Below are positions 17,524-41,918 of a DNA stretch of 58,976 nt, piece by piece. The notes under the pieces were generated by a model, which saw only the letters and a program-made list of their open reading frames with translations, was not told where the DNA came from and ran no database searches. Within the stretch, counting starts at the first letter, position 1; each line of letters starts with the position of its first letter. The stretch comes from Candidatus Staskawiczbacteria bacterium RIFOXYB1_FULL_38_37 (GTDB lineage Bacteria; Patescibacteriota; Minisyncoccia; Minisyncoccales; Staskawiczbacteraceae). Position numbers and translations under genes: made by a program. The stretch lies in the NCBI GenBank assembly GCA_001822075.1, contig MHPK01000006.1, positions 1 through 58,976 on the forward strand, written 5' to 3'.

Positions 17524-18153
17524 CTAAGCGTGCCGGCGGCGGAGGTAAACCGCGATACTACTCAATGCGAATCCGAGCATCATCACAATGCTCGACGGCT
17601 CGGGCACGGCAAGGAAATCTCCTTGCAGTCCGAATTCCACAGTAAACCGAGTTCTTCCCGACACATACAAGTCGGGATACTCAGTAAGTGTGACCGTCAG
17701 TAAAAAGGCTTGGGCTTTCGGCGACCACACGTCTAGAGAGCCCGAAAAGTCGCTCCAGCCATAGGAATAGGAGTCCGAAACTCCTTCAAAAATCTCCACT
17801 CCATCGTAGTTTGTTGTGCTGGACGACGCCCACGAAGTTTCTGAAGTTGGAATTTCAAGGCCCCTTACCGACAAAGTTGCAGACCAGTGGTCTGGGTCAG
17901 CGGCAGTTGGAGCATTGAAGGTCCAAATTGCATTGTTTACCTGAAAGGGCGTGTGTACATCAAACCATGAGTGGGAAAAATCGTTGCCATCGCCAGCATA
18001 CCGCTGGCTTCCCATGGCAATGTAGAAATTAGGCGGATACATCATGCTGTCCGTGATAGTAGACCCTTCCACCAAATAGTTGGCCGAGGCCTTGCTCGCA
18101 GCTGCAATCACCAGCAACGCCAACACTACTGTCATCGCATTCATCCCTTTCAT
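17524..18153 (-). CDS. PEP-CTERM sorting-domain secreted protein (orphan)
   Basis: Signal peptide MKGMNAMTVVLALLVIAAASKASA; C-terminus VPEPSSIVMMLGFALSSIAVYLRRRHA; SD AAGGAGAG upstream. Confidence 0.85.
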   Translation of the reverse strand: MKGMNAMTVVLALLVIAAASKASANYLVEGSTITDSMMYPPNFYIAMGSQRYAGDGNDFSHSWFDVHTPFQVNNAIWTFNAPTAADPDHWSATLSVRGLEIPTSETSWASSSTTNYDGVEIFEGVSDSYSYGWSDFSGSLDVWSPKAQAFLLTVTLTEYPDLYVSGRTRFTVEFGLQGDFLAVPEPSSIVMMLGFALSSIAVYLRRRHA

Positions 18154-18169
18154 CTCAACTCTCCTTGTC

Positions 18170-21905: not shown

Positions 21906-22445
21906 AAAACTCAATTAATAAAAATTTTCCGGAAATATTTTAAAATAAAATCTGTATCTATTTAAACTTACGTTGTGAATCGAAAGATATAGACCCGCTG
22001 TTCAGTACGACCAAACTCGAAATTCGAATATCGAAATTCGAAACAAATTTTAATTTTCAAAACTTAAATGTTCAAAACCCGTCGTGTTTTGGATTTTGGT
22101 TATTTGGATTTTTGATATTGTTTCGGATTTCGTACTTCGGATTTTTCGACGCACTGAACAGCAGGTCTATGATTTATTAGTACTCCCCGGCTGAAGGCAT
22201 TACTGCCCTTACACCTGGAGCCTATCAACCCCGTCATCTACGGGGAATCTATGAGTTCTCATCTTGGAGTTAGTTTCGCGCTTATATGCTTTCAGCGCTT
22301 ATCTATTCCCGACTTAGCTACTCAGCAATGCCCTTGGCAGGACAACTGATACACCAGAGGTCAGTTCATTCCGGTCCTCTCGTACTAGGAACAAATCTCC
22401 TCAAAACTCAACGCCTGCGGTAGATAGGGACCAACCTGTCTCACG

Positions 22446-23164
22446 CTTATACCACTTATTACTAAGTGCGTGGACTATACCATATTCCGTATATTTGTAA
22501 CTATTTTTTTACGGAACCCGACGTTTTATAAAATTATTTCTAATTTTATCTGCCCTAAAAATAGGACAAGTCTCTACGGGGTTAATGTACGTACTTTTCT
22601 ATTTTTGGAATAATTTAATTCCCGAAAAGTATCAATTAATTTCGCAAGAGCTTCAAAATCTTTTTTATTTTCAACTTTACTTTTTGCAATGATAATCTTT
22701 TTTAGAAGCGCCACCTGTAACTTTTTCATCACAACGTATGGCTCTACTAAATTTAAAAATTTGATTATATTTTCTTGTTTTCCGATGATATATTCTAGAA
22801 TACCATCTTTTCTAATTCTTATATAACCAAGATTTATCATCGAGCAAAGTTTCTCAAAATTTTTCTGGTCTTTCTGCGATTGGAACAAGACAATATACGG
22901 CGCAACTTGGAAACCAAACTTGTATGTTTTGTTTGGCTTTAATTGCACATAAATACTGCCGTCTCCATCGAGAAAACCAGCTAAATATGCTCTTTTTGTT
23001 TGCGAAATCAACTTTTTCATACACAACTTCCCTCGGTATTATCCTAACATATGACAGGTTAATGTTCAATACTTTGTTAGGAATTCACCGATATGAGTCG
23101 GTTTGCTATCACAATTGCTCATGAAAGCCGCCGTGTTGATCTCGATATATATGGTTCATTTTTG
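22446..23164 (-). mobile_element. Group I intron in 23S, inferred after U2593 (E. coli numbering)
   Basis: Exons ...AAACCGT | CGTGAGACAG; intron ends in G; P1 candidate CCGU/GCGG; core-like GACTATACC/ACCCCGTAGAGACT. Confidence 0.85.
22574..23026 (-). CDS. LAGLIDADG homing endonuclease (single motif)
   Basis: AYLAGFLDGDGSIYVQL; inside the 23S intron. Confidence 0.9.
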   Translation of the reverse strand: MCMKKLISQTKRAYLAGFLDGDGSIYVQLKPNKTYKFGFQVAPYIVLFQSQKDQKNFEKLCSMINLGYIRIRKDGILEYIIGKQENIIKFLNLVEPYVVMKKLQVALLKKIIIAKSKVENKKDFEALAKLIDTFRELNYSKNRKVRTLTP

Positions 23165-23253
23165 ACGGTTTGAACCCAGCTCACGTAACTTTTTAACCGG
23201 CGAACAGCCGGACCCTTGGGAGCTTCTCCACCCCCAGGATAAGTTGAGCCGAC

Positions 23254-24164
23254 CACAAAATTCTATTATTACTAATAGCGCAGACTATACCTTTATTTAG
23301 ATGTCCATCTAAATACCAACGTTTTATAGTATATAAAAAATAATACTATCTTCATCCTGCTTTTTGCAGGAATCCAGTCGTTACGGGGTTGCGAAAACCT
23401 ATTTTGTACATCATCGAAGGGATAATATACGGACTAATGATATTGGCTAATTTTTTTGTTTCTTCTTGGTTGCAATACATTCGATATCCTTTATCGCGGT
23501 CGCGATAATAATTTATTTTGATATCAAAAATATCTTTAAAGCATTCCTGCAGAAAAATTATTTCCGGTAAGGAAAAGGAATATGTGCTTATATCAATTTT
23601 ATTTTTGGAATATGAACCATCGTCCATAATCCAAATTGCCAAGATAAAAGGATTTAATTCTTTTTTAATTTCAACCGGAACTATTTTTGTTCCATTTTTG
23701 TAATCATTTCCTCTATAAAACCTTTTATATATTTCTGTAAAATATGGATGTCTTATTGTCCTAAACCACCACGATTTTTCATATTTATTGCCATTTTTAT
23801 CGTATCTGTAACTTATTTTTGGTTCAGTAAATACAAATGATTTAAGTATTTGGTATTTCCAAATAACATAATCTTTTTGCGCTAATCCATGTTCTACCTT
23901 AAAGTTGACATTTTGGGCGCCTTTACCCAAACGCATCGTTCCATCGCCAAGAAGCGATCCAATAATCAAATCTTTCTGCATTTTTGTCAGCAAAAGAGAC
24001 TTTTTAATTGGAATCCACTTTTTATGCCAATGTTTATTTTCGCAACTTCCCACGGTGTTGACCATATAATTGTGTAATTTACTTTATTATAGCAAATTTA
24101 CTGGGTTTTTTATATGGCTTTCTCCGTTATGAGTTGGTTTACTTCCTCGACATTCGGCTAATTC
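23254..24164 (-). mobile_element. Group I intron in 23S, inferred after U2504
   Basis: Exons GGCACCTCGAT | GTCGGCTC; P1 CCTCGAT/GTCGAGG with U.G at the splice site; intron ends in G. Confidence 0.88.
23352..24065 (-). CDS. LAGLIDADG homing endonuclease (two motifs)
   Basis: LIIGSLLGDGTMRLGK and FILAIWIMDDGSYSK. Confidence 0.92.
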   Translation of the reverse strand: MVNTVGSCENKHWHKKWIPIKKSLLLTKMQKDLIIGSLLGDGTMRLGKGAQNVNFKVEHGLAQKDYVIWKYQILKSFVFTEPKISYRYDKNGNKYEKSWWFRTIRHPYFTEIYKRFYRGNDYKNGTKIVPVEIKKELNPFILAIWIMDDGSYSKNKIDISTYSFSLPEIIFLQECFKDIFDIKINYYRDRDKGYRMYCNQEETKKLANIISPYIIPSMMYKIGFRNPVTTGFLQKAG

Positions 24165-24219
24165 ATCGAGGTGCCGAACAGAGCCGTCGATAAGGACTCT
24201 CGGGCTCTACCAGCCTGTT

Positions 24220-25144
24220 CATGTTTTCACATAGACTATATCTTCACCCGCCCAAATATTTATTTTTGGCGGGGACGGCGTTTTAGCAAGGATTTTACCC
24301 TCGCTCTGTCTGAGACTTCAGACAAGTCGTTACGGGGTCAGGAAGAAAGTTTATAATTAAAATAATTAATAATATAATTTTTAATCAGCAATTTTAATTT
24401 TTCAATTTGTGAATGGGGAAAATAAATTGCAAACCCCTTCTTCTTTTGTTTTACTTTCGTTTGAATGTCAAACTTTTTAAGTATCGCCGAAGAAACAATA
24501 TTTGCTTCTTTTTCACTCACATTTCCAAGATAAAGATAACTACATTTATCTCTTTGATAATAATAGCCATCATCCATATACCAAACCGCAAACATTTGCG
24601 GTGAAATATATTTTTCCAGATTTTCCGGAATTATCTTTTTCCCTTCTGGATAAAACATTTTTCTTAATTTTCCCAAATAGGGGGTGGATTGCGATTGATG
24701 TCTCCAATACTTATATTTTCTTTTTGTCAAAGGATGGATTCTCTCCATATATTTTGGTTTTCCCTGGAATAACTGCTTTAACCTTTCTATTTTCCAAATA
24801 AGATATTCTTTTTGCTTATATCCATGTTCTAATCTTAATCGTGCGTTATTTTCCCCAGTTTTTTGCAAATATCCGTCTCCTAAAATTATTCCAAAAAGAA
24901 TTGATTCTTGCTCCTTAGATAAAGAAATCATGATTTTAGTAAAACTATTCTTCCGACTTCCCACGGTATTCCAATGGATTTTAAACCCTTTTTTGAGGGA
25001 AGACCAATCCATGGTTCACCGTTATAAGCCGTACGTGCCTGGAAAAAGTGGTAATTTCCCAAGCGCCCATTCTCACGAATGGGTTGGACAACAAACTCTT
25101 TTTCCCGCCTGCGCCGATAACTTTCGGCGGGCAGGTCAGAGTCT
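24220..25144 (-). mobile_element. Group I intron in 23S, inferred after U2449
   Basis: Exons CTCCGGGGAT | AACAGGCTGG; intron ends in G; ATATAGTC core element. Confidence 0.85.
24338..25012 (-). CDS. LAGLIDADG homing endonuclease (two motifs)
   Basis: ILFGIILGDGYLQKTGENNARLRLEHG and FAVWYMDDGYYYQRD. Confidence 0.92.
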   Translation of the reverse strand: MDWSSLKKGFKIHWNTVGSRKNSFTKIMISLSKEQESILFGIILGDGYLQKTGENNARLRLEHGYKQKEYLIWKIERLKQLFQGKPKYMERIHPLTKRKYKYWRHQSQSTPYLGKLRKMFYPEGKKIIPENLEKYISPQMFAVWYMDDGYYYQRDKCSYLYLGNVSEKEANIVSSAILKKFDIQTKVKQKKKGFAIYFPHSQIEKLKLLIKNYIINYFNYKLSS

Positions 25145-25654
25145 ATCCCCGGAGTAGCTTTTGGCTGATGATCTTCTCATTTTCTATAAAAATGAGTCGG
25201 TTCACTAAGTTCTGCTTTCGCAACTGCGCGACATAGCCGTCTTGCAGTAAAGCTGGCTTATGGCTTTGCCCTATCGCTTCGATTTCCATCCGAAGCTAGC
25301 CAACCTTTAAACGCCTCCATTACTCTTTAGGAGGCAAGTGCCCCACTTAAACTGCCCATTAAACACTGTCATCCCAAGTTAAGGGAATTAGAATTATAAT
25401 TTTCAAAGATGGGTGTTTCATTGGCGGATCCATCCCGCCCGAAGGCGGGACTTCAAATCCTCCCCACTACGCTACGCATCGAAAATCATAAACCAATATC
25501 TAACTACAGTAAAGCTTCCGGGGTCTTTCCGTCTAGCCGCAGGTAGGCAGCATCTTCACTGCCATTGCATTTTCACCGGGCGCCTCGTTGAGACAGTCTT
25601 CAAGTCGTTAAGCCATTCATGCGGGCCGGAACTTACCCGGCAAGGGATTACGCT

Positions 25655-26186
25655 CAATTTTGTTACTTAGTGTTAATTAAGTCATTTTTAACACCGGTGC
25701 AGTCATTTCTGCTGCATTCTGCATGTCGCCATGCAGTTCAGACTATATCTTGCGTTCATTGAAAAAAAATGCGGGTAGAGGCATTTCGCATGCCCGCCTA
25801 ATGTCAATTTACGCCTTGGCGTATAGTCGTTGAGGGGAATAATTATTCAATAATCAATGAAAGGGAAACAAAAGAGATTGTTGCTCTATTGTTTTCCCTT
25901 CTCAGTTTAGCCATAACTCTACTCTTGCATCGTTTTGCCGATGCATCGTTTGAAGCACGGAAGGTCGTGTATCTCATACCACCGCTACAATCAATATATC
26001 GTTCCTCATACGTTAATTGATACACTCTTTCACTTACTTCTCTTTTTTTCATGGCTTTCTCCTTTATTCTTCCCTGCTGATTGTCCGCACCGAACATATT
26101 TTCACCCACGATACAATCGGGGTAATGTCGGATACAACGGAGTTTCCAGCATATAGCCAAGTTTTACAAAAGCAATTGCGTTTGTT
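25655..26186 (-). mobile_element. Group I intron in 23S, inferred after U1931; lacks a recognisable homing endonuclease
   Basis: Exons CAAAGGT | AGCGTAATCC; P1 CAAAGGT/GCTTTTG with U.G; intron ends in G; core AAGATATAGTC and CAACGACTATACG. Confidence 0.85.
25843..26052 (-). CDS. Small SD-led ORF inside the U1931 intron, not LAGLIDADG (MKKREVSERVYQLTYEERYIDCSGGMRYTTFRASNDASAKRCKSRVMAKLRRENNRATISFVSLSLIIE)
   Basis: AAAGGAGAAAGCC-ATG upstream of an internal Met of ORF 25843..26160; the upstream extension overlaps intron core sequence. Confidence 0.5.
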   Translation of the reverse strand: MKKREVSERVYQLTYEERYIDCSGGMRYTTFRASNDASAKRCKSRVMAKLRRENNRATISFVSLSLIIE

Positions 26187-26200
26187 ACCTTTGGACGATT

Positions 26201-26949
26201 TCTCTCTTTTTATTAGTCCTTCGAGAGGTAAATCTCGGGACAGCCTTTATGTCGCCATAAAGAGCGGACTATATCATCCCGTTTCAAAAAATTAATTTTG
26301 ACGGGCTTCGCGTATAGTCTCTGAGGATAATAGAAATTTGTATATTGAGGATTCTTCAAATGGTTTGCGATGCGTCATTTTTTCTGCGATTCTTGCAATT
26401 TTTATCATTCCCTTTTTTGTTAAGTGTTCTCCCTTATCCATCATTTCAATAACTTTAACAAATCTTTCAAAATCATTTATTTTGGCTTTGCCAAAACATT
26501 TATAATTTTTGAAAAAAGGAATAATTTTTTCTTGCAATTCGCTTCTATTTCTGACGCAATATTTATAGAGAGGGTCCCATTTTCCTTGTTTTATATTTCT
26601 CGCGTTGTGCGCGTATATATGTCCGCAAGCAAAAAATTTTTCTAATTTATGAAGCAAATCTTTTCCTTTTAATGATTGTGAAACATTAAATTCAGGAAAA
26701 ACTTGCCATTTATTTTTTGCTCTTGGAGATTGAAATATATTTACAAGAAAAGACCCTTCTCCATCTACAAACCCAGTAATCCATCCACATATTTCTATTC
26801 TTTCCTGCTGATTGTCTGCACTGAATGCTTTTTTACTTTGCATAATATCAAAGGGGTAAATACACCTTTAATATATTATAACATAGTAGCATCAGATACT
26901 ACAGAGTTTCCAGCATATAGCGAAGTTTTATAACTACAATCGTCATCTT
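26201..26949 (-). mobile_element. Group I intron in 23S, inferred after U1917 (H69 loop)
   Basis: Exons GGCGATAACTAT | AATCGTCC; P1 ATAACTAT/GTAGTTAT with U.G; P10 candidate GACGATT/AATCGTC; core CTCAGAGACTATACG and GATATAGTCC. 3' junction ambiguous by 1 nt. Confidence 0.88.
26292..26843 (-). CDS. LAGLIDADG homing endonuclease
   Basis: GWITGFVDGEGSFLVNIFQSP; N-terminus SADNQQERI is encoded by ribozyme-core-like sequence. Confidence 0.92.
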   Translation of the reverse strand: MQSKKAFSADNQQERIEICGWITGFVDGEGSFLVNIFQSPRAKNKWQVFPEFNVSQSLKGKDLLHKLEKFFACGHIYAHNARNIKQGKWDPLYKYCVRNRSELQEKIIPFFKNYKCFGKAKINDFERFVKVIEMMDKGEHLTKKGMIKIARIAEKMTHRKPFEESSIYKFLLSSETIREARQN

Positions 26950-29620
26950 ATAGTTATCGCCGACGTTCATTGGTGCTTCATTCAGTGAGCCTGAACCTTA
27001 CGGCTCAGACCCCCAAACTTAACATTCCAACACTGGTCAGGCCTCACCCCCTATACATCCTCTTACGAGTTAGCAGGGAGCTGTGTTTTTGATAAACAGT
27101 CGCTTGAAGTACGTTTGTTGCATCCCGACCACCTTGCGGTGGAGGGAAGGCCATATTGCGAACTTACGGCCACTTGTTTGCCGAGTTCCTTAACGAGGTT
27201 TCACCCGTTCACCTTAGCATACTTACGCTTGTCCACCTGTGTCGGTTTGCGGTACGGTTCGAATACAATTAGCTTGATAGCTTTTTTCTGGGCATCGCGC
27301 TCATCTCAATTGTCCCGCCAAAGGCGGGGCTTTTCTCGCACCTTGATTTACCTTAGTGCAAGAGCGTGAAATCCAATAATCCGCTGAAACTACTGTAATG
27401 CGTCTTTCTATCAAAATGTATCCGAGGGTCGGAATATTAACCGACTGTCCATCAGCTGCCCCTTTCGGGTTTGCCTTAGGACCGCCTAACCCTTGGTTGA
27501 ATACCATTGCCAAGGAAACCTTGGACTTTCGGTGTGCAGGGCTTTCACCTGCAATGCGGTTACTCAGGCCAACATTCTCTCTTCTGAGCGCTCCACCGTC
27601 GTTTACACTTCGGCTTCAGTGCCCTCAGAATGCTTCCCTACCACTACCGCTCCTCGCTACTGCTCGTCGCTTCATCATCGAATTACGAATTTGTTACGAA
27701 TTTACTAATTCGTACATTCGTATTGATTCGTTATTCGTTGATGAGCTCCGAACAAAAGTGAGGAGCAGTAATCCATGTCTTCGGTATTAGACTTTAGTCC
27801 CGATAATCTTTGGCGCATCTCGCCCCTGCCTTTCCAAAGGAAAGACTTTGGGCAGTGAGTTGTTACACACTCTTTAAAAGATAGCTACCTCTAAGCTAAC
27901 TTCCTGCCTGTCTAGGGCAAAATACTTCCTTAAAAACACTTAGTCTAATTTAGGGACCTTAGACGATGATCTAGGCTGTTTCCTTTTTGACCACGGAGCT
28001 TAGCCCCCGCAGTCTAACTGCCTATCCAAAACACACGGTATTCGGAGTTTGATTAGAGAACCTGGAGAAACTCCAAGGAATTCTATTCAGTGCTCTACCC
28101 CCGTGTGCTGTTAATAGACGCCAGCCCTAAAGCTGTTTCGGGAAGAACCAGCTATTACGTAACTCGATTAGCTTTTCACTCCTTGCCACAAATCATCCAA
28201 GAGGATTGCACGCCTCACTAGTTCGGACCTCCTCCCGCCTTTCGGCGGGATTCATCCTGCTCATGGCAAGCTCGTCACGCTTCGGGTCCTGAATATACAA
28301 TTATAATTCGCGCTTTTAACACTCGCTTTCGCTATGCCTCCGCCCCAAAAGGGCTTAGACAATTATATATCCAGACTCGTTGGCTCGTTCTGCAAAAAGC
28401 ACGCCGTCACCCCGCCAAAGGCGGGGCTCCGACTCTTTGTAAGCAAATGGTTTCAGGTACTATTTCACCGGGGTCACCCCCCTACTTTTCACCTTTCCCT
28501 CACGGTACTGGTTCACTATCGGTGATATTGATTATTTAGCCTTGGCCGATAGTTCGGCCTGCTTCCTGCCAGGTTATCATTCCCGACAGTACTCAAGAAT
28601 CATAGCAAAGAGCATAATAAGTATTTTAGAATACGGGGCTATTACCCTCTATGGCGCCCCTTTCCAGGGTGCTTCTTTTAACACTATTATTTTGTATTCT
28701 CTCTCAGCAAGCATTACCTCGCGCTCCGCGCGAAAAATTTTAAATTTAAAATTTTAAATTTTTAATTCCTTTTGCGAAGCAAAAGGTAGTGCTCCTGACG
28801 CTACAACCTTACAACCCAGAATCTAAAGATTCTGTTTAGGCTTCCCCCTGTTCGCTCGCCACTACTAAGGGGATAACTTTGTTCTCTTTTCCTCCGGCTA
28901 CTGAGATGTTTCACTTCGCCGGGTACGCTTCTGTCCAACTTTTTAAACTTTAAATTTTTAAAGTACAAAAAGCTGGACAGATAATATGAGATTAATCATA
29001 TTGAGTTTCCTCATTCGGAAATCACCGGATCAAAGGTTGCTAGCCACCTCCCCGATGCTTATCGCAGGCACGCCACGTCCTTCATCGCATCAATATCCCA
29101 AGGCATCCGCCATTCGCTTATAACCTGACCTGCTGCTCAATGATTTCTGTCTTTTAAAAAATCATTGAGCAGCAGATCTATATCTTTCAATAAATTCAAA
29201 TGAATTTACGAAGATCACCATTCCATTTTCTTTTTGCGTAAAATGGAATTTTTTGCGTAAGTTTACCCGCCTAAATTTTCAATAAGAAAATTTGGCGAGG
29301 TTAATAGATACAGATTTTATTTTAAAATAAAATCTTATGCCCGCTTTCGCATAAAGCTACGGCGGGTAAATATGCTTTAGTTTACCTACTTTCTAACCAA
29401 GCAAAGACCCCTGTCTAAAACTTAGTTAGAAAAACCTGTTAAAAATTGCTGGTGGCAATTTTCCATCAAAGGAATTTAACAGGGTTAAATTTTCAATGTT
29501 CTTGGTTTTAATAAATTAAAAACCGCCTTTGCGAAGCGGTCATTTACTAACACAAAAAGTCAGACAGTTATCCGCTTCGTTTTTTGATAGTAGTTTTTAA
29601 TATATTTACCATGTAAATCT

Positions 29621-31198: not shown

Positions 31199-31507
31199 AT
31201 GATAGTCGTTCTAAATGGCTGCATGCTGCTAATCGCTGTAATGTTGGCCATATGGCTGGCAATTCTAGTTTTTGATTGGCTGTTAAAAACATCTTTTGAT
31301 ATTTTTAACATTTGCCCGCGGTGCGGTTCACATTCGTCATACGTATACAGAATTCTGCGCTGTGCAAGAACTGAAGAGAGAACCAAAACTGCCTATTTCG
31401 CGTTTGATGAAAAAATCCGCCAATGCATAGGTTGCGGCCACTCTCGCTTAGTTAAGCGATATGGGTGCACTGTCAGAGTTAGACGGCGCAATACGCGAAG
31501 AAGATAA
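31199..31507 (+). CDS. Orphan small protein: TM helix plus two CxxC knuckles
   Basis: SD AACAAGGAGG; ICPRCGSH...QCIGCGHS; start moved from 31172 to the ATG after the SD. Confidence 0.7.
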   Translation: MIVVLNGCMLLIAVMLAIWLAILVFDWLLKTSFDIFNICPRCGSHSSYVYRILRCARTEERTKTAYFAFDEKIRQCIGCGHSRLVKRYGCTVRVRRRNTRRR

Positions 31508-33781: not shown

Positions 33782-34183
33782 TTAAAGGTGCGGGCAATTA
33801 AATGGCAAGGGGTGCGGCTGTTTGCCGCCATACACTATAACCCCTACTATACAGGGTTTTTCTCTGACCCTTTCTTTTGCTTCTAAAAATTCAAGCGCAA
33901 AAACTGCGAAGTCTGACAGAGAGGCGCTCTCTGAACGTAAAAACTCGCGAGCCTGCTGCCGGGTCACAAAAGCAATCAAGTAAGTGCCCATATCGCAAAG
34001 TGTTTCAGTATCTCGGAAAGTTATGCTGGCGAATTTATTTTTCCCGCGCTCTTTTAGCGCGTAAAAAATCTCGGGCACTTCGAATGATTCATTTTCGGCT
34101 ACAAAAGGATACCATCTGCTGGATATTCTCTTTTCTCTTTGAATGGCTTGCCAAAAATAAGAATTTTTGCAAATAGCTACCAT
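33782..34183 (-). CDS. Orphan protein (133 aa) downstream of tRNA-Ala
   Basis: SD AAAGGAGGTG upstream of ATG; no family recognised. Confidence 0.65.
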   Translation of the reverse strand: MVAICKNSYFWQAIQREKRISSRWYPFVAENESFEVPEIFYALKERGKNKFASITFRDTETLCDMGTYLIAFVTRQQAREFLRSESASLSDFAVFALEFLEAKERVREKPCIVGVIVYGGKQPHPLPFNCPHL

Positions 34184-34234
34184 CTTACACCTCCTTTAAG
34201 TCCTTTAAGGTTTTAAAGGTGCCGTGTAAACTAG

Positions 34235-34812: not shown

Positions 34813-37800
34813 TTAAATAATTCTATTGAACACAAAATATGCCCCTATGGCAAACAAAAGATAAGCTATAACACTGGCTACAACTGCTAGAATTATATGA
34901 GAGGAAATAAATTGCGCCAGCTGACTAAGAAAGGATTGCTTTTCTGAGAGTTTTGGAATTTTAAGACTAATTGATCCAGCTGACTGCAAATTTCCAGATT
35001 CAGCCTTTACTGCTATTAAAGTTATTTCTTGGGCCTGGTCTGATTTTGCCTTAAAAGTGATTTTCTTTTCAGAATACGGTTCTAAAGAACCGATATTCAT
35101 GCCATAAACTATGTTTTCTGAAGAAGGCTCGCCGTCTATCTTAGAATCCCCTTGATAGCTCATGCCTTCAGGCAGTTGAACTGTGGTTGTAACTTCTCCT
35201 ATGCCTTCGGCTGTGTTATTTGCCACCACCAGTAAAAATTCCAAATTATGGCTCTGCGTAAGGTCGGGATTTTCCTGCCACTCGCCTGTTTTTTGGTCTT
35301 TTGCAAAAAGCTTCAGGCTAAGCGCGCCAGATGAACAGTCTTTGGGGCAAGTTAAGGCATCTTCTTGGCAATTGCAAGTATCATCTCCGCAGGTAGATTT
35401 TGATTTGCAATATTCATCTGGGTTATATCCAGCGCATTCTCCATTATCGCAAAAAGAATCCTGGCAATCTTGATAAATTTCCTGTATCTGGCCTGTTGAG
35501 TCATACCAATAGACATCATCGTTATAGCACCCCTTTCTATAGTTTTTGATATAGGTAAGGGAGCTGCTGCACTTCTGAGTTTTTTGGCATACATACCCGC
35601 ACTTTCCGTCTTTGCACGACCACGAAGGTTCTTGCGTTTCAGAACAATTTCCATATCCGCAGGATGTACTGCCCTGGCACGTTTTATCAGACGACCAGTC
35701 AAGACATTCATCTGAATCATACTGCCCGCAGATTTGTTTATAAGATGTATCAGAGCACTTTACTTGGCCTTGTTCGCAATCATTTTGGCATTGCTGTGTT
35801 TGTTGAGAGGCAGTCTGTTGTTCGGTTTCCTGCGGCGGCAGGAGTTCCGATTCTTCTCCGGCGCAACTATTGCTTGGGTTGCACAAATATGTGCAACTTC
35901 CATTTTCGCACCTCCATGAGGGCTTGTATTCTGGAGGGCATATTCCGTATCCGCAACTAGTATCGCCCGAACATATTGTGGCAGTTGACCATTCAAGACA
36001 AGTGTCAGAATCATATTGCCCGCAGGTCTGCCTATGAGATGCGTCAGAACACTTTGCCTGGCCTGATATGCATTCATTGGCGCATTCATCTGATGGTTCG
36101 GGTTCGGGTTCGGGCTCTGGTTCGGGCGTTTCATTTAAACACGTATTAACGCACGTTCCTGTTTCAATTATAGGATTTCCAGAGTTTAGCGGCTGGGTAA
36201 CCCAATAGCCGTATGGAGCTATATTATTTTGGGGAGTATAAATTTGGCCGTTAGGAATTAAAATTCTTGTTGTGCCGTTTATCAAAAATAAAGCCGGATT
36301 TTGCTGGAGAACTTGATAAGTGTGTCCGCTGTCTTGGTTGGGTGTTAATCTATAAAGATTATAATGATTAGGAACTCTCATTCCTGTTAAAACATAATCT
36401 GCGCTATCGCTTACAAGGCTGCTAACAAGACTTTGCCTGTCCTGCCTGAAAAATGTTAACTGGTCAAATTCCTGCAAAAGCGCGTTCATTGCTGTAGATT
36501 CGGCAGTTCTGTCTGCTGTAGTGCGGGTGTCTTGGTCTTCGCCGTTGCCAGATGAATTGAACCAGCTTATGCCGTCAGAGCCCGTAAGCAAAACATGAAA
36601 AACATTTTCAGTCCAATATTTTGCGTAATTTAAATTAAATGTCTGGTTTTGCGGACTTTGCAAATCATAAGACCAATGGCTGAGCCACACGCGCAAAGGC
36701 ACCGAAGGTCCGGAAAGAGTTGCTGCGCGAATAGAATTAATCCCCAGTTTAAAACTGCTGAAGGTTATGTTTTCATAAGTTGCTATATCTTGGTGCGTGC
36801 CCACCTTTACGCCAGAGCCATAAGGCCAAAGCAATCCCGGTCTAGGATAAGCGGAACTATGCATAAAATTTGCATTATCTGTCATCTGCGCATTTGGATA
36901 ATATGATTTCAAAACATTGTAATACGCCTGGTTCAAATATTCAGCTTCCATATCCCAAGCAACAGAATTCCACATCAATTGTATATTTGTGGTAGCGGGC
37001 CTCGTCCATTCATATGTCCAAGGAGTGATGTAGTTATAAAGGGTTTGGCCTTGAGGAATTACAAATCCGTACTGAGCCAGTTTTGAGGCCATCGCAGGAA
37101 AGCGCGGATCATTTTGAATGCCGTTCCACCAAGCTTCAACGCGCTCGTTATAGGCTGGATAATAAAGAGACTCGTTGCATGGGGTGTCAGAATTATCGCC
37201 AGAAGGAATAAGGCTGGAAGGCCAGGGTTTTGCAAATCCCACATCAAATCCTATTTCATAATCAGACTGAAGATAATTAATTTCTTTTCCGCCGAGACCG
37301 ATATAATCATTTAAAAATGTTTGAAGCCGGCTCTGGTTTTCTGAAACCCAATTATTCCACCAGGGGCTTCTGTAATTAATCGCGTATCCATCAACTTTGA
37401 TATACGGACTTGTGCACCCGGGAGGCACTGGAACATCTTGCGCTCTCTCGCATGTTGAAAGGTCATTAGGGTTTGCGCAAGACCCCGGAATAATTATATT
37501 ATCTTTATCGCCCACTGTATCTATATAATCTCCCCATCTCGGATAAAAATAGTTAAGCACTGCCCTAAATCCTTTTGGCTGGCCGTCTGTAATGGTTTTT
37601 ATTCTTGCAACCTCTGCAGTATTGCCTATGTCTGCTATTTCAATGTAAGCTACCGGAACAATGTGCCAAAATTGCTTGTTATAAGCGCTTCCGGTTTGAG
37701 AATATATCCTGCCTACAGAACAGCTTGTGGTCCCGCACCAGCTGTATGCTATGCTTACATTTTCCCACTGGCAGGTGGAGTTGCATCCGTCTTCAGCTGA

Positions 37801-38034
37801 AAAATTTCCGTCATCGCACTCTTCTCCCAAATCCTCTTCAACAATGCTGTTGCCACATCCTCCTGCCCCAGAGCTTAAAACAGGGAGCTTTAAAAAAGCC
37901 GGGCCTATTTTGAAATCAAATGATTCCCATTTTATTTTTTTAATAGCATCAAAATTTAAAATACAAAAAACAGCAGAACAAATTAAAATAATTGCCGCAA
38001 AAATAATTAAAACTTTCCGCGTTCTAAAACCCAT
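34813..38034 (-). CDS. Large secreted protein with Myxococcus-type Cys-rich repeat, central glycoside-hydrolase-like region, further Cys-rich modules and C-terminal TM
   Basis: CGNSIVEEDLGEECDDGNFSAEDGCNSTCQ; CANECISGQAKCSDASHRQTCGQYDSDTCLEWS repeated; DUF11-like; TM at C-terminus. Confidence 0.7.
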   Translation of the reverse strand: MGFRTRKVLIIFAAIILICSAVFCILNFDAIKKIKWESFDFKIGPAFLKLPVLSSGAGGCGNSIVEEDLGEECDDGNFSAEDGCNSTCQWENVSIAYSWCGTTSCSVGRIYSQTGSAYNKQFWHIVPVAYIEIADIGNTAEVARIKTITDGQPKGFRAVLNYFYPRWGDYIDTVGDKDNIIIPGSCANPNDLSTCERAQDVPVPPGCTSPYIKVDGYAINYRSPWWNNWVSENQSRLQTFLNDYIGLGGKEINYLQSDYEIGFDVGFAKPWPSSLIPSGDNSDTPCNESLYYPAYNERVEAWWNGIQNDPRFPAMASKLAQYGFVIPQGQTLYNYITPWTYEWTRPATTNIQLMWNSVAWDMEAEYLNQAYYNVLKSYYPNAQMTDNANFMHSSAYPRPGLLWPYGSGVKVGTHQDIATYENITFSSFKLGINSIRAATLSGPSVPLRVWLSHWSYDLQSPQNQTFNLNYAKYWTENVFHVLLTGSDGISWFNSSGNGEDQDTRTTADRTAESTAMNALLQEFDQLTFFRQDRQSLVSSLVSDSADYVLTGMRVPNHYNLYRLTPNQDSGHTYQVLQQNPALFLINGTTRILIPNGQIYTPQNNIAPYGYWVTQPLNSGNPIIETGTCVNTCLNETPEPEPEPEPEPSDECANECISGQAKCSDASHRQTCGQYDSDTCLEWSTATICSGDTSCGYGICPPEYKPSWRCENGSCTYLCNPSNSCAGEESELLPPQETEQQTASQQTQQCQNDCEQGQVKCSDTSYKQICGQYDSDECLDWSSDKTCQGSTSCGYGNCSETQEPSWSCKDGKCGYVCQKTQKCSSSLTYIKNYRKGCYNDDVYWYDSTGQIQEIYQDCQDSFCDNGECAGYNPDEYCKSKSTCGDDTCNCQEDALTCPKDCSSGALSLKLFAKDQKTGEWQENPDLTQSHNLEFLLVVANNTAEGIGEVTTTVQLPEGMSYQGDSKIDGEPSSENIVYGMNIGSLEPYSEKKITFKAKSDQAQEITLIAVKAESGNLQSAGSISLKIPKLSEKQSFLSQLAQFISSHIILAVVASVIAYLLFAIGAYFVFNRII

Positions 38035-38371
38035 TCGTTAATTATAGTTGAAATAAAAGAACCAGTCAAAAACAAAAAATCCCCCTCGCCAAAGGCGCGG
38101 GGAATTTTTTGTTTTAGTTTCTTAAAGTTGTTTTCCCGCCGAGGCGGGACCCCGCTATGGCGGGGCGAATTAAAGGAGAATTTCTAGCGACTCTCCTCAA
38201 AACGCTTCAGAGTTAAAATCAAAACGATTCGACGAGCTCATCGAACTGAGCAAATCGAACCATTCTGATATTTTTCTGAGTCGACTACATAAATTCTGAA
38301 ATTCGCCGATTGGCGAACCAAAATTTTTAAAAAAATGATCCACGACCAGCTTCCGCTAGCCGTGCCTTGTT

Positions 38372-39156
38372 CATGATTTTCTCTATATCGCTATAAAGCA
38401 TGGACTATATCTTCATCCTATCGCAAAATATCTTTGATTTTACCGGATGGTAAGAATTTACAATTTCTGCAAACTTTTTATGATGCTTGGAAGATATAAA
38501 TATCCGCCAATAATCAGGGTCAACTTTTTTGCTTGGGTTATGAATTTTCCCGCTTTCTATCCCTATATCCGAAAGCATAGTTTTAATTTTGTTCATCTTG
38601 TCCAAGTCCTTCTGTACTAATTGGATATAAAACCTATCTTTTGTGTGCGGAATTCCTCCCTCAGCATCAAAGAATCCTCTGATATAAAAAGCTTTTTCAG
38701 AATTATCTCTTAACCTTGAAGGATCAAATCTAAAATCCAAATCTTTACAAAGAGTTTCCAAGACATAAATATTTCTGTCTTTTCCTTCCTTGTAAATCCA
38801 AGAGTTGCAGTCTATTTGCTTTAACAAACCTTGTAAATTCTCAAGCCATTGCTTATTTTTCTGAGCGAATCTAATTCTTTTGCCTTTATTCAAGGTCGCA
38901 TCATGGATTGCTCCATTCAAATAAGCGATGATTTGATATTTTGTAGTAGGAGTTCGGCGTGTAGTCTCTGAGGGGTCACTCGCCAAAAATTGAATATTTG
39001 GGCGAGGACTTCCCTGCTGATTTTCTGCACCGATTGCATTTTCACTCATGATATAATTATATCATGAGTAGCATCGGATACACAGATGTTCCAGCATACA
39101 GCCAAATTTGTCAGCCACATTGCTGTGGCAGGTCGCAACAAGTGCAGTTTGCACCT
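38372..39156 (-). mobile_element. Group I intron in 16S, inferred after U1498
   Basis: Exons AAGTCGT | AACAAGG; P1 GTCGT/GCGAC with U.G; intron ends in G; GAAGATATAGTCC and CCTCAGAGACTACACG core elements. Confidence 0.9.
38405..39049 (-). CDS. LAGLIDADG homing endonuclease
   Basis: FYIRGFFDAEGGIPHTKDRFYIQLVQKD; first motif degenerate (IIAYLNGAIHDATL). Confidence 0.8.
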   Translation of the reverse strand: MSENAIGAENQQGSPRPNIQFLASDPSETTRRTPTTKYQIIAYLNGAIHDATLNKGKRIRFAQKNKQWLENLQGLLKQIDCNSWIYKEGKDRNIYVLETLCKDLDFRFDPSRLRDNSEKAFYIRGFFDAEGGIPHTKDRFYIQLVQKDLDKMNKIKTMLSDIGIESGKIHNPSKKVDPDYWRIFISSKHHKKFAEIVNSYHPVKSKIFCDRMKI

Positions 39157-39247
39157 ACGACTTAGCCCCTCTTACTGAATCTAGCTTAGGGCCCTTGCGG
39201 GCACTTCGGCTATCCCCAGCTCGCTTGGCTTGACGGGCGGTATTGAG

Positions 39248-40195
39248 ATCAAATAGTAATTTGTCTCGCACCACCGGACGAACGGTTTTCCCGTATCCTG
39301 GCGGTTTCCATCAGAGAATTGTGCTTTTTGCCCATTGATCGCATTTTATCTCGCAGTTTGACAATTTTGACGTAGCCAGAATCAGTCAAATGCTCTTTTC
39401 TGCGATACATTAACACAATTTTTTTAAATAATTTGTAGACCTTGCATTTTTTTGTCTGCAGATTGTATTCATCAAGAAAGGGAAATAAATAATTATTCAT
39501 ATCGTCCGCGCCCGTAATTTTGTATTTTACGTGCGGATACCAACCGTAACGGTCGTATGAACAATCATATAATTTTCCGCAACCGATTGTAATTAATACT
39601 CTTTCAAGTATTTCTTGATCATCGGCTCGGAGTTCGATTTCAAATTCGGCGCGAACTTGAACACCTCTGCGGTATTCATCGTTTTTGCCGATACTTACTG
39701 AAAACGAACCTTCTCCATCAATAAAACCTGCCACATAATGCGGGTTTAATTTTTCTCTATGGATTTGTTCCTTCCCGATAGGCGCTTTTAATTTACGATT
39801 ATAACGTTTATCGGTACTACGAACTCTGCTGACTTCTTGCTGTTGCATAAAACTAAAATTGCTTTTAATTTTTTCCTGAGGTTAGTTATACAACTTAATT
39901 ATATAACATTGCCAAAGAAACAACAACAAGATCTCCCCGGGTCATCTTAAAAAACTTTTTTCTACATCTCGGCCTTCCGATTATTGTAATTCTATAATTC
40001 TCAGATGACTTCCCTGTGTACTCGATAGGTCATCAGAATCACAACCTTTTAATGAAGGACTCAAGCTATAAAATGCCTCCCCACCCTTCAATTTAAATTT
40101 CACAATTTAAACCTGCGGATCGGCTTTGCGCAATCTGAGATATGCGTAGTAAGATTTTCACTTACTTTTTTCTAAAACTGCCGGGCATCCCGAGT
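39248..40195 (-). mobile_element. Second 16S insertion near E. coli 1395 (type unclear, junctions approximate)
   Basis: Interrupts CTTGTAC...ACCGCCCGTC; encodes a LAGLIDADG protein; obvious P7 motifs not seen. Confidence 0.75.
39249..39848 (-). CDS. LAGLIDADG homing endonuclease
   Basis: HYVAGFIDGEGSFSVSIGKNDEYRRGVQVRAEFEIELRADDQEILE. Confidence 0.92.
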   Translation of the reverse strand: MQQQEVSRVRSTDKRYNRKLKAPIGKEQIHREKLNPHYVAGFIDGEGSFSVSIGKNDEYRRGVQVRAEFEIELRADDQEILERVLITIGCGKLYDCSYDRYGWYPHVKYKITGADDMNNYLFPFLDEYNLQTKKCKVYKLFKKIVLMYRRKEHLTDSGYVKIVKLRDKMRSMGKKHNSLMETARIRENRSSGGARQITI

Positions 40196-41918
40196 ACAAG
40201 ACTCAGGAACGTATTCATCGCCACGTAGCTGATTGGCGATTACTAGCGATTCCGGCTTCATGAGGGCGAGTTGCAGCCCTCAATCCGAACTGAGACCGGC
40301 TTTGATGGGATTAACCTCCGCCTCTCGGCATCGTACCCATTGTACCGGCCATTGTACCACGTGTGCAGCCCAGGTCATCAAAGGGCCATGCGGACTTGGC
40401 GTCATCCTCGCCTTCCTCCCAATTATCTCGGGCAGTCCCCTATGACATTTAAAACATAGGGCAAGGGTTGCGTTCGTTACCCGAATTAACGGTACGTCTC
40501 AAGACACGAACTGACGACAGCCATGCAGCACCTGTGCTAGTGTCTTGTGGAGGGCTCTAATTTCTTAGAGCTTTCACTAGCATGTCAAGACCTGGATAAG
40601 GTTCTTCGTTTGTTGTCGAATTAAGCCACATGGTCCACCGCTTGTGTGAGTCCCCGTCTATTCCTTTGAGTTTTAGTGTTGCCACCGTACTTCCCAGGCG
40701 GAATACTTAACGCGTTAGCTTCGCCACTGGCAGGGTCGACACTACCAATAGCCAGTATTCATCGTTTACAGCGTGGAATACAAGGGTATCTAATCCTTTT
40801 TTCTCCCCACGCTTTCGTCCCTCAGTGTCAGGGTCGTCCCAGCTAACTGCCTTCGCTTTTGGTGTTCCCGACGATATCAACGGATTCCACCCCTACTTCG
40901 TCGGTTCCGTTAGCCTCTAACGCCCTCTAGTATAGCAGTATTGAAAGCATTTCAAAGGTTAAGCCGATGAACTTTAACTTTCAACTTACTATGCCACCTA
41001 CGGACCCTTTACGCCCAATAAATCCGGGTAACGCTTGAGGATTCTGTCTTACCGCTGCTGCTGGCACAGAATTAGCATCCCCTTATTCATGTGGTACTGT
41101 CTCCCCGCCAAAGGCGGGGTTCCTCCCACATAAAAGAACTTTACACCCCGAAGGGCTTCTTCATTCACGTAACGTCGCTCCGTCAGGCTTTCGCCCATTG
41201 CGGAAGATTCTCGACTGCAGCCTCCCGTAGGAGTATGGGCCGTTCTCAGTCCCATTCTTGGGGGTCGCGCTCTCACGCCCCCTACCCGTCATAGACTTGG
41301 TAGGCCGTTACCCTGCCAACTATCTGATAGGCCGCAGGCCAATCTTCAACCGGTAATCCTTGCGGACACCCTTTACCCTTGCGGGACTATCATGAATTAC
41401 CCAACCTTTCGGCTGGCTATACATGTGTTGAAGGTTTGTACCTACGTGTTACTAAGCCGTTCGCCGCTATCCCTTGCGGGATCGCTCGACTTGCATGCCG
41501 GTATCCACGTTACCAGCGTTCACCCTGAGCTAGGATCAAACTCTCAAATATACAGTTTGATTTACTACTCTTGCTTTGAATAAATCCAAAGCAATTAGAA
41601 TAAACTACTAATGTGTTCCCGACAAAAACACAAAGTGTATTTTGACGGGATAATTCGAAACAACTTTAAAAAACTAATTTTATGGTTGTTTATTTATTAA
41701 ATTTAGAATGGTTTTTCTAAATTTAATTTCATATTCAATTATCAATGTTCTTTTTCAGCGGATCAAATTACCGATACGCCGAGTGAAAAAAACACCCGCG
41801 TCCACGATGCAAATGTATTGTATCGGGACGCGGACGTTTTTCAGCTACGAAAACGTTAAATTGTTTTATTTAGTTTTTGCGGTAGTAGAACTTAATACTA
41901 TTTTCAGCTACATTGTCC

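What the first reader, a model, noticed from the sequence alone, without database searches (positions are those of the whole stretch)
38171..38345. 16S 3' end lacks the anti-Shine-Dalgarno: GGATCA followed by TTTTTTT
Minus strand reads AACAAGGCACGGCTAGCGGAAGCTGGTCGTGGATCATTTTTTTAAAAATTTTGG. Helix 45 with its GGAA loop is intact, but CCTCCTTT is missing where it should follow GGATCA. About 150 nt further on, CTCCTTTA appears inside a hairpin with GAGGAG. Either the anti-SD was lost, or a ~157-nt insertion (38179-38335) separates it from the body and must be removed. In line with loss, about 30 main-gene starts inspected by eye (e.g. serS, lysS, tsf, rpsB, ftsQ, mreC, ackA) show no SD.
Basis: partly seen in the sequence, partly recalled or inferred. 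Interest (0 to 1): 0.85.

Follow-up and report, generated by a model that had tools for sequence, protein, structure and literature searches.

The report
16S rRNA lacking the anti-Shine-Dalgarno
The ribosome of this tiny Parcubacteria-type bacterium has lost the short RNA tag that most bacteria use to find the start of a gene, and the same loss runs through its whole order and about two thirds of the sampled genomes of its class, so it is real and old rather than a sequencing slip.

Summary
The only 16S gene of this genome (Ca. Staskawiczbacteria-like; 762 kb, 98.8% complete) ends GGATCA-TTTTTTTAAAA, with no CCTCC after helix 45. It is neither an assembly error nor an unspliced insert. All 29 relatives' 3' ends fetched also lack CCTCC, and all 30 loci read from a phylum-wide search have it. 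In the class, 51 of 142 readable tails keep GGATCA-CCTCC, 19 have a shifted or partial CTCC, and 72 have neither. On a 16S tree this needs at least five state changes, or about ten independent losses if CCTCC is never regained.

The downstream CTCCTTTA belongs to a variable hairpin and to the pre-16S processing stem, so it is not a displaced anti-SD.

Native genes of this genome show no SD excess (7 of 565, controls 3-4). SD motifs concentrate in foreign-composition genes (14 of 56). SD use is also weak in relatives that keep the anti-SD, so scarcity of SD is not diagnostic by itself.

Initiation probably relies on A/U-rich, unstructured start regions, leaderless transcripts at some operon heads, and coupling inside operons. 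Anti-SD-less bacteria are known, including single CPR genomes. The class-wide extent appears unreported.

The parts
40192..41551 (-). 16S rRNA, first exon (to CTTGTACTC, about E. coli 1400)
   Evidence: cmscan RF00177, 1246.8 bits; exon end inferred from intronless relatives CTTGTACTCACCGCCC
39242..40191 (-). intron 1 in 16S: group II-like (RF01998 at 39768-39873) with a LAGLIDADG_1 ORF at 39249-39848; boundaries approximate
   Evidence: corresponds to the hot spot 16IS9 at position 1400 of PMC11270868
39156..39241 (-). 16S rRNA, second exon (ACCGCCCGTC ... AAGTCGTA)
38371..39155 (-). intron 2 in 16S (about E. coli 1498) with a LAGLIDADG_3 ORF at 38405-39049; boundaries approximate
   Evidence: relatives read AAGTCGTAACAAGG without interruption
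38336..38370 (-). last 16S exon: helix 45 with GGAA loop and the GGATCA linker
38324..38335 (-). T7-A5 tail in place of CCTCCTTTCTA; GGATCATTTTTTTAAA or close variants are conserved in the family
   Evidence: sequence not conserved in family members; TAATTCG pairs with the 16S leader
38114..38133 (-). 3' arm of the pre-16S leader-trailer processing stem
   Evidence: 95% complementary over 20 nt to 41658-41677, extended by 38166-38172 with 41651-41657
41651..41677 (-). 5' arm of the pre-16S leader-trailer processing stem

Best explanation
The 16S rRNA of this bacterium truly lacks an anti-Shine-Dalgarno sequence. An ancestor in the class stopped depending on SD pairing, the CCUCC core and then the GAUCA linker lost constraint, and the tail after helix 45 became a short A/U sequence (here AUUUUUUUAAAA). 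Starts are probably found without 16S-mRNA pairing: A-rich, weakly structured start regions bound by the 30S subunit and an S1-like protein, leaderless transcripts at part of the operon heads, and termination-reinitiation inside operons. Shown: the sequence, its clade-wide distribution, repeated loss on a tree, absence of SD in native genes, the leaderless promoter signal, and the dip in structure at starts. Inferred: the mature 3' end, the role of S1, coupling, and the order of events.
For: One 16S gene with no GATCACCTCC in the genome. The same loss in all relatives' 3' ends fetched and in independent MAGs from many sites. In the class, CCTCC in 51, shifted CTCC in 19 and neither in 72 of 142 tails; the GATCA linker is intact in 51/51 keepers but only 15/72 losers. 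The 16S tree shows one deep all-lost clade of 28 plus further losses, at least 5 changes, 10 losses without regain. All 30 tails read from the phylum search have CCTCC. SD-like 4-mers at -18..-4: 7.9% against 8.2% control in G000 (n=571), 46% in E. coli with the same pipeline. Strict SD: 7/565 native genes (controls 4 and 3) against 14/56 genes of GC 0.43 or more (controls 1 and 0). TANNNT exactly at -12: 48 seen, 25.2 expected at operon heads; 20 against 17.2 inside operons. Mean 40-nt MFE rises to -2.2 at starts from about -4.4 upstream. Era absent class-wide.
Against: The mature 3' end is not determined experimentally. Starts were called as the first ATG of long ORFs. Relatives that keep CCTCC use SD only slightly more (strict SD 4.6% against 3.0% in G000, p=0.2), so SD scarcity does not prove the link. 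64 of 214 class genomes gave no readable helix 45. An S1-like and a weak bS21-like gene are present, which does not discriminate between mechanisms.
Confidence: 0.88

Rival explanations
1. A ~157-nt insertion (38179-38335) separates the anti-SD from helix 45 and is excised from the RNA, restoring CUCCUUU.
For: CTCCTTTA does occur at 38178-38171.
Against: Relatives have trailers of different length and no conserved CTCCTTT; the motif is one arm of a hairpin whose sequence differs between members. TAATTCG next to it pairs with the 16S leader, so it lies at the processing stem removed in maturation. No intron family reaches its gathering score in the stretch.
Confidence: 0.02
2. Assembly or binning error at the end of the 16S gene.
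For: The sequence is from a metagenome assembly; some bins in the survey do hold a second, foreign 16S tail (G617, G244).
Against: The same tail type recurs in the family in genomes of many projects and contigs up to 660 kb, and different losses occur in dozens of families.
Confidence: 0.01
3. The U-rich tail is a replaced anti-SD that pairs with A-rich leaders (AAAA upstream of starts).
For: AAAA is enriched at -7 to -5 in this genome (about 11% against 4-5% further upstream), and runs of 6 or more complementary to the tail occur in 25.7% of leaders against 13.7% in upstream controls.
Against: Shuffled leaders give 22.9%, so composition explains nearly all of it. A-richness also rises at starts in genomes whose tails are not U-rich and in those with CCTCC. 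Tails differ widely between families.
Confidence: 0.05
4. Bacteroidota-like state: anti-SD kept but hidden by bS21/bS18/bS6.
For: SD-poor genes and A-rich starts resemble Flavobacterium; a bS21-like gene is present.
Against: The anti-SD itself is gone.
Confidence: 0.01

Closest known systems
'SD-scarce' organisms lacking CCUCC, category iv of PMC10783764 (Flavobacteriia, Mycoplasma, Carsonella, Hodgkinia; single genomes of Absconditabacteria SR1, Campbellbacteria, Wolfebacteria, Peribacter)
   Same: No CCUCC after helix 45 and few SDs.
   Different: There, four CPR candidate phyla with one or two genomes each; here a whole order and about half to two thirds of the sampled class, with repeated losses, linker decay and SDs confined to foreign genes.
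128 taxa without CCUCCU in Amin et al. 2018 (PMC6107228)
   Same: Loss of anti-SD clusters in clades and goes with loss of SD; a few had AAAA as leader motif, judged unlikely to act as an SD.
   Different: No CPR class is named as a concentration there.
Bacteroidota (Flavobacterium johnsoniae; PMC6847099)
   Same: SD-independent initiation tuned by mRNA structure and by bases near the start codon.
   Different: There the anti-SD is retained.
Mammalian mitochondrial ribosomes
   Same: Small-subunit rRNA without anti-SD (PMC10582724); mRNAs largely without leaders (general knowledge, not looked up).
   Different: ERAL1 (Era) is kept in mitochondria, while Era is missing here; this is a bacterial genome of about 760 kb.
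rRNA insertion sequences of CPR bacteria (PMC11270868)
   Same: The two introns here sit at the described sites near 1400 and 1498.
   Different: The word Shine does not occur in that paper; the missing CCTCC is not caused by such an insertion.

Membership tests
Anti-SD-less bacterial ribosomes (PMC6107228; category iv of PMC10783764) | No CCUCC in the ~13 nt after helix 45 | tested here: met
   GGATCATTTTTTTAAAA
Anti-SD-less bacterial ribosomes (PMC6107228; category iv of PMC10783764) | Holds in every rRNA copy | tested here: met
   One 16S gene in a 98.8% complete genome
Anti-SD-less bacterial ribosomes (PMC6107228; category iv of PMC10783764) | Shared by close relatives | tested here: met
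   All 29 other 3' ends fetched from the family and order
Anti-SD-less bacterial ribosomes (PMC6107228; category iv of PMC10783764) | Genes lack SD enrichment | tested here: met
   Native genes 7/565 strict SD, controls 4 and 3; foreign-composition genes differ, 14/56
Anti-SD-less bacterial ribosomes (PMC6107228; category iv of PMC10783764) | Mature 16S 3' end shown on RNA | not testable with these tools
   No RNA data
Bacteroidota-type sequestered anti-SD | CCUCC retained | tested here: not met
Excised rRNA intron or intervening sequence at the 16S 3' end | Intron signature or uninterrupted form in siblings | tested here: not met
   No Rfam hit in 38179-38335; no sibling fetched has CCTCC after helix 45

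The most novel reading that the evidence does not exclude
Loss of the anti-SD is a recurrent, class-scale feature of Paceibacteria-type CPR, and the family-specific U-tract tail has taken on a new role in start selection by pairing with A-rich leaders, while SD-bearing foreign genes are translated poorly or by another route.
Probability: 0.06. Interest if true: 0.85.

Novelty: new member of a known kind. Interest (0 to 1): 0.62.

Why it matters
The anti-SD is among the most conserved stretches of bacterial RNA, and its loss was known mainly from Flavobacteriia, some mycoplasmas, insect symbionts and isolated CPR genomes. Here it appears lost in about half (no CTCC at all) to two thirds (no intact CCTCC) of the sampled genomes of a very large, mostly uncultured class, with about ten losses if it is never regained. 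That gives a natural replicate series for asking what replaces SD pairing and in which order the parts decay (SD use, Era, CCUCC, linker). It also affects gene-start prediction in these genomes, because finders that score SD motifs will be misled, and it offers a test of how foreign genes carrying SDs fare on ribosomes that cannot read them. A 2025 survey of ribosome biogenesis in 505 CPR genomes noted only that the 16S 3' terminus was often not fully annotated (PMC12641178).

Tried and rejected
Displaced anti-SD 150 nt downstream: rejected. A second intact 16S gene: none. Poly-U tail pairing with poly-A leaders: explained by composition. A conserved precursor hairpin directly after GGATCA (CTCCTTTCTAGGGAG in keepers; TTCCAATTTGGAA, ATCCTAGTAAGGAT and similar in some losers): real in some lineages but not general, mean z only -0.35 in losers, so not used as an argument. 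YbeY loss tracking anti-SD loss: 1/51 against 10/91, Fisher p=0.10, inconclusive. bS21: divergent but found in keepers and losers; no statistical test made, no relation claimed. Genome-wide SD difference between keepers and losers in the class: weak and mostly not significant.

Full report
What is there. On the minus strand the last exon of 16S runs 38370-38336 (ACAAGGCACGGCTAGCGGAAGCTGGTCGTGGATCA). It is followed by TTTTTTTAAAAATTTTGG where CCTCCTTT is expected. Helix 45 is intact. The rest of 16S begins at 41551. It is interrupted by two introns with LAGLIDADG ORFs, one group II-like near E. coli position 1400 and one near 1498, both at sites described for CPR rRNA (PMC11270868). Joining the exons gives a regular 16S that ends in GGATCA. 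The genome (762,385 bases, 7 contigs, 98.8% complete) holds one 16S gene, one helix-45-like sequence and no GATCACCTCC.

Not an error, not an insert. Of 58 genomes searched with the 3' end, 41 matched. All 29 other 3' ends fetched from them, in the same family and order, lack CCTCC directly after helix 45, and most of the family reads GGATCATTTTTTTAAA. Record titles from an independent collection show this tail type mostly in Ca. Staskawiczbacteria. Matching A/T-rich tails also occur in records titled Nealsonbacteria, Liptonbacteria, Jorgensenbacteria, Harrisonbacteria, Yanofskybacteria and Wolfebacteria, from many unrelated projects (names are those of the depositors, and a few off-group titles are probably mis-binned contigs). 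The CTCCTTTA at 38178-38171 is one arm of a hairpin whose sequence varies among relatives. The adjoining TAATTCG pairs with the 16S leader: 41677-41658 with 38114-38133 (20 nt, 95% complementary) and 41657-41651 with 38166-38172. This is a typical pre-16S processing stem, so the motif lies in RNA that maturation should remove. No intron family matches in the supposed insert.

How far the loss extends. A pattern that prints the tail was run over 214 genomes of the class; 150 matched, and 142 listed tails were used. CCTCC follows GGATCA in 51 tails. In 19 a shifted or partial CTCC remains, and in 72 neither is present. By family, 22 of 73 have only intact tails. The linker is perfect in 51 of 51 keepers and in only 15 of 72 losers, the expected mark of released constraint. 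All 30 loci read from a phylum-wide search have CCTCC, so an intact tail is the likely ancestral state. A 16S tree of 58 rows, built without the tail, has one clade of 28 that is all lost (SH-aLRT 94) and includes this genome, plus scattered losses in the sister group. It needs at least 5 changes of state, or 10 losses if CCTCC never returns. Some bins carry a foreign second tail (G617, G244), and 64 genomes gave no match, so the percentages are approximate. The pattern favours GGATCA tails, so any bias is against the losers.

Do the genes use SD? ORFs of 130 aa or more with the first ATG as start give 571 leaders in this genome. SD-like 4-mers at -18..-4 occur in 7.9%, against 8.2% at -60..-46; E. 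coli treated the same way gives 46% against 8%. Operon-internal genes are even depleted (4.7% against 10.5%). The strict motif AGGAG/GGAGG is present in 7 of 565 genes with GC under 0.40 (controls 4 and 3), but in 14 of 56 genes with GC of 0.43 or more (controls 1 and 0). The same tendency appears in eight other anti-SD-less genomes (outlier genes 6/51, controls 0 and 0; typical genes 12/430, controls 5 and 3) and not in nine keepers (4/75 and 19/423). The simplest reading is that recently acquired genes still carry their donors' SDs. A caution: keepers of the class also use SD rarely (strict 4.6%, controls about 1.7%), and the difference from losers is mostly not significant.

How starts are probably found. 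At operon heads of this genome TANNNT is doubled exactly at -12 (48 seen, 25.2 expected) and not inside operons (20 against 17.2). TTGACA-like boxes add up 22-23 nt further upstream (10 of 48 at -35 and 9 at -34), which places transcription starts at the ATG: leaderless mRNAs for a minority of heads. The same peak is seen in keepers and in other losers. Starts are A-rich at -6 to -3, and predicted structure is weakest there (mean 40-nt MFE -2.2 against about -4.4 at -60). Many co-directional genes overlap or lie within 10 nt, which suits coupling. An S1-like protein of about 370 aa (called S1-like from its match to the rpsA model, below that model's cut-off), KsgA and YbeY are present, and a weak bS21-like match exists. 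Era, which reads GAUCACCUCC in other bacteria, has no true member in the class apart from one probable contaminant, in line with PMC12641178 and PMC10582724. That may have relaxed one constraint on the sequence (inference).

Relation to what is known. Bacteria without CCUCC are known (PMC6107228), and PMC10783764 lists one or two genomes each of Absconditabacteria, Campbellbacteria, Peregrinibacteria and Wolfebacteria as SD-scarce without CCUCC. Searches of the held library for anti-Shine-Dalgarno with CPR or Patescibacteria, and for Shine-Dalgarno with Parcubacteria, found no description of the extent seen here. The library does not hold most subscription papers. The organism is therefore a new member of a known kind; the class-scale repetition and the foreign-gene SD pattern are what appear new.

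Noticed in passing
window 17527-18156 (-), 31199-31507 (+), 33785-34186 (-); elsewhere in the genome contigs C1:50064, C2:14932, C2:28254, C6:66985, C6:140097: High-GC genes with strong SDs and recurring leaders (stem-loop, then CCTTT..AAGGAG or ACCTTTACAGGAGAATANCG), one with a PEP-CTERM motif; they look like acquired gene cassettes with a shared leader type.
   Followed up: partly
window 22170-29135 (-): 23S rRNA is spread over about 7 kb in at least three separate covariance-model matches, indicating several large introns.
   Followed up: no
window 34813-38034 (-): The 1073-aa protein gene just downstream of 16S has a TTGACT box, then TATAAT at -12 and ATG 6 nt later, the layout of a leaderless promoter.
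   Followed up: no
G617 and G244: Bins with two different 16S tails, one of them foreign, indicating contamination in those MAGs.
   Followed up: no
16S tails after GGATCA in several families: A short hairpin directly after helix 45 persists with different sequence in some anti-SD-less lineages (for example TTCCAATTTGGAA, ATCCTAGTAAGGAT), as if the processing hairpin outlived the anti-SD.
   Followed up: partly
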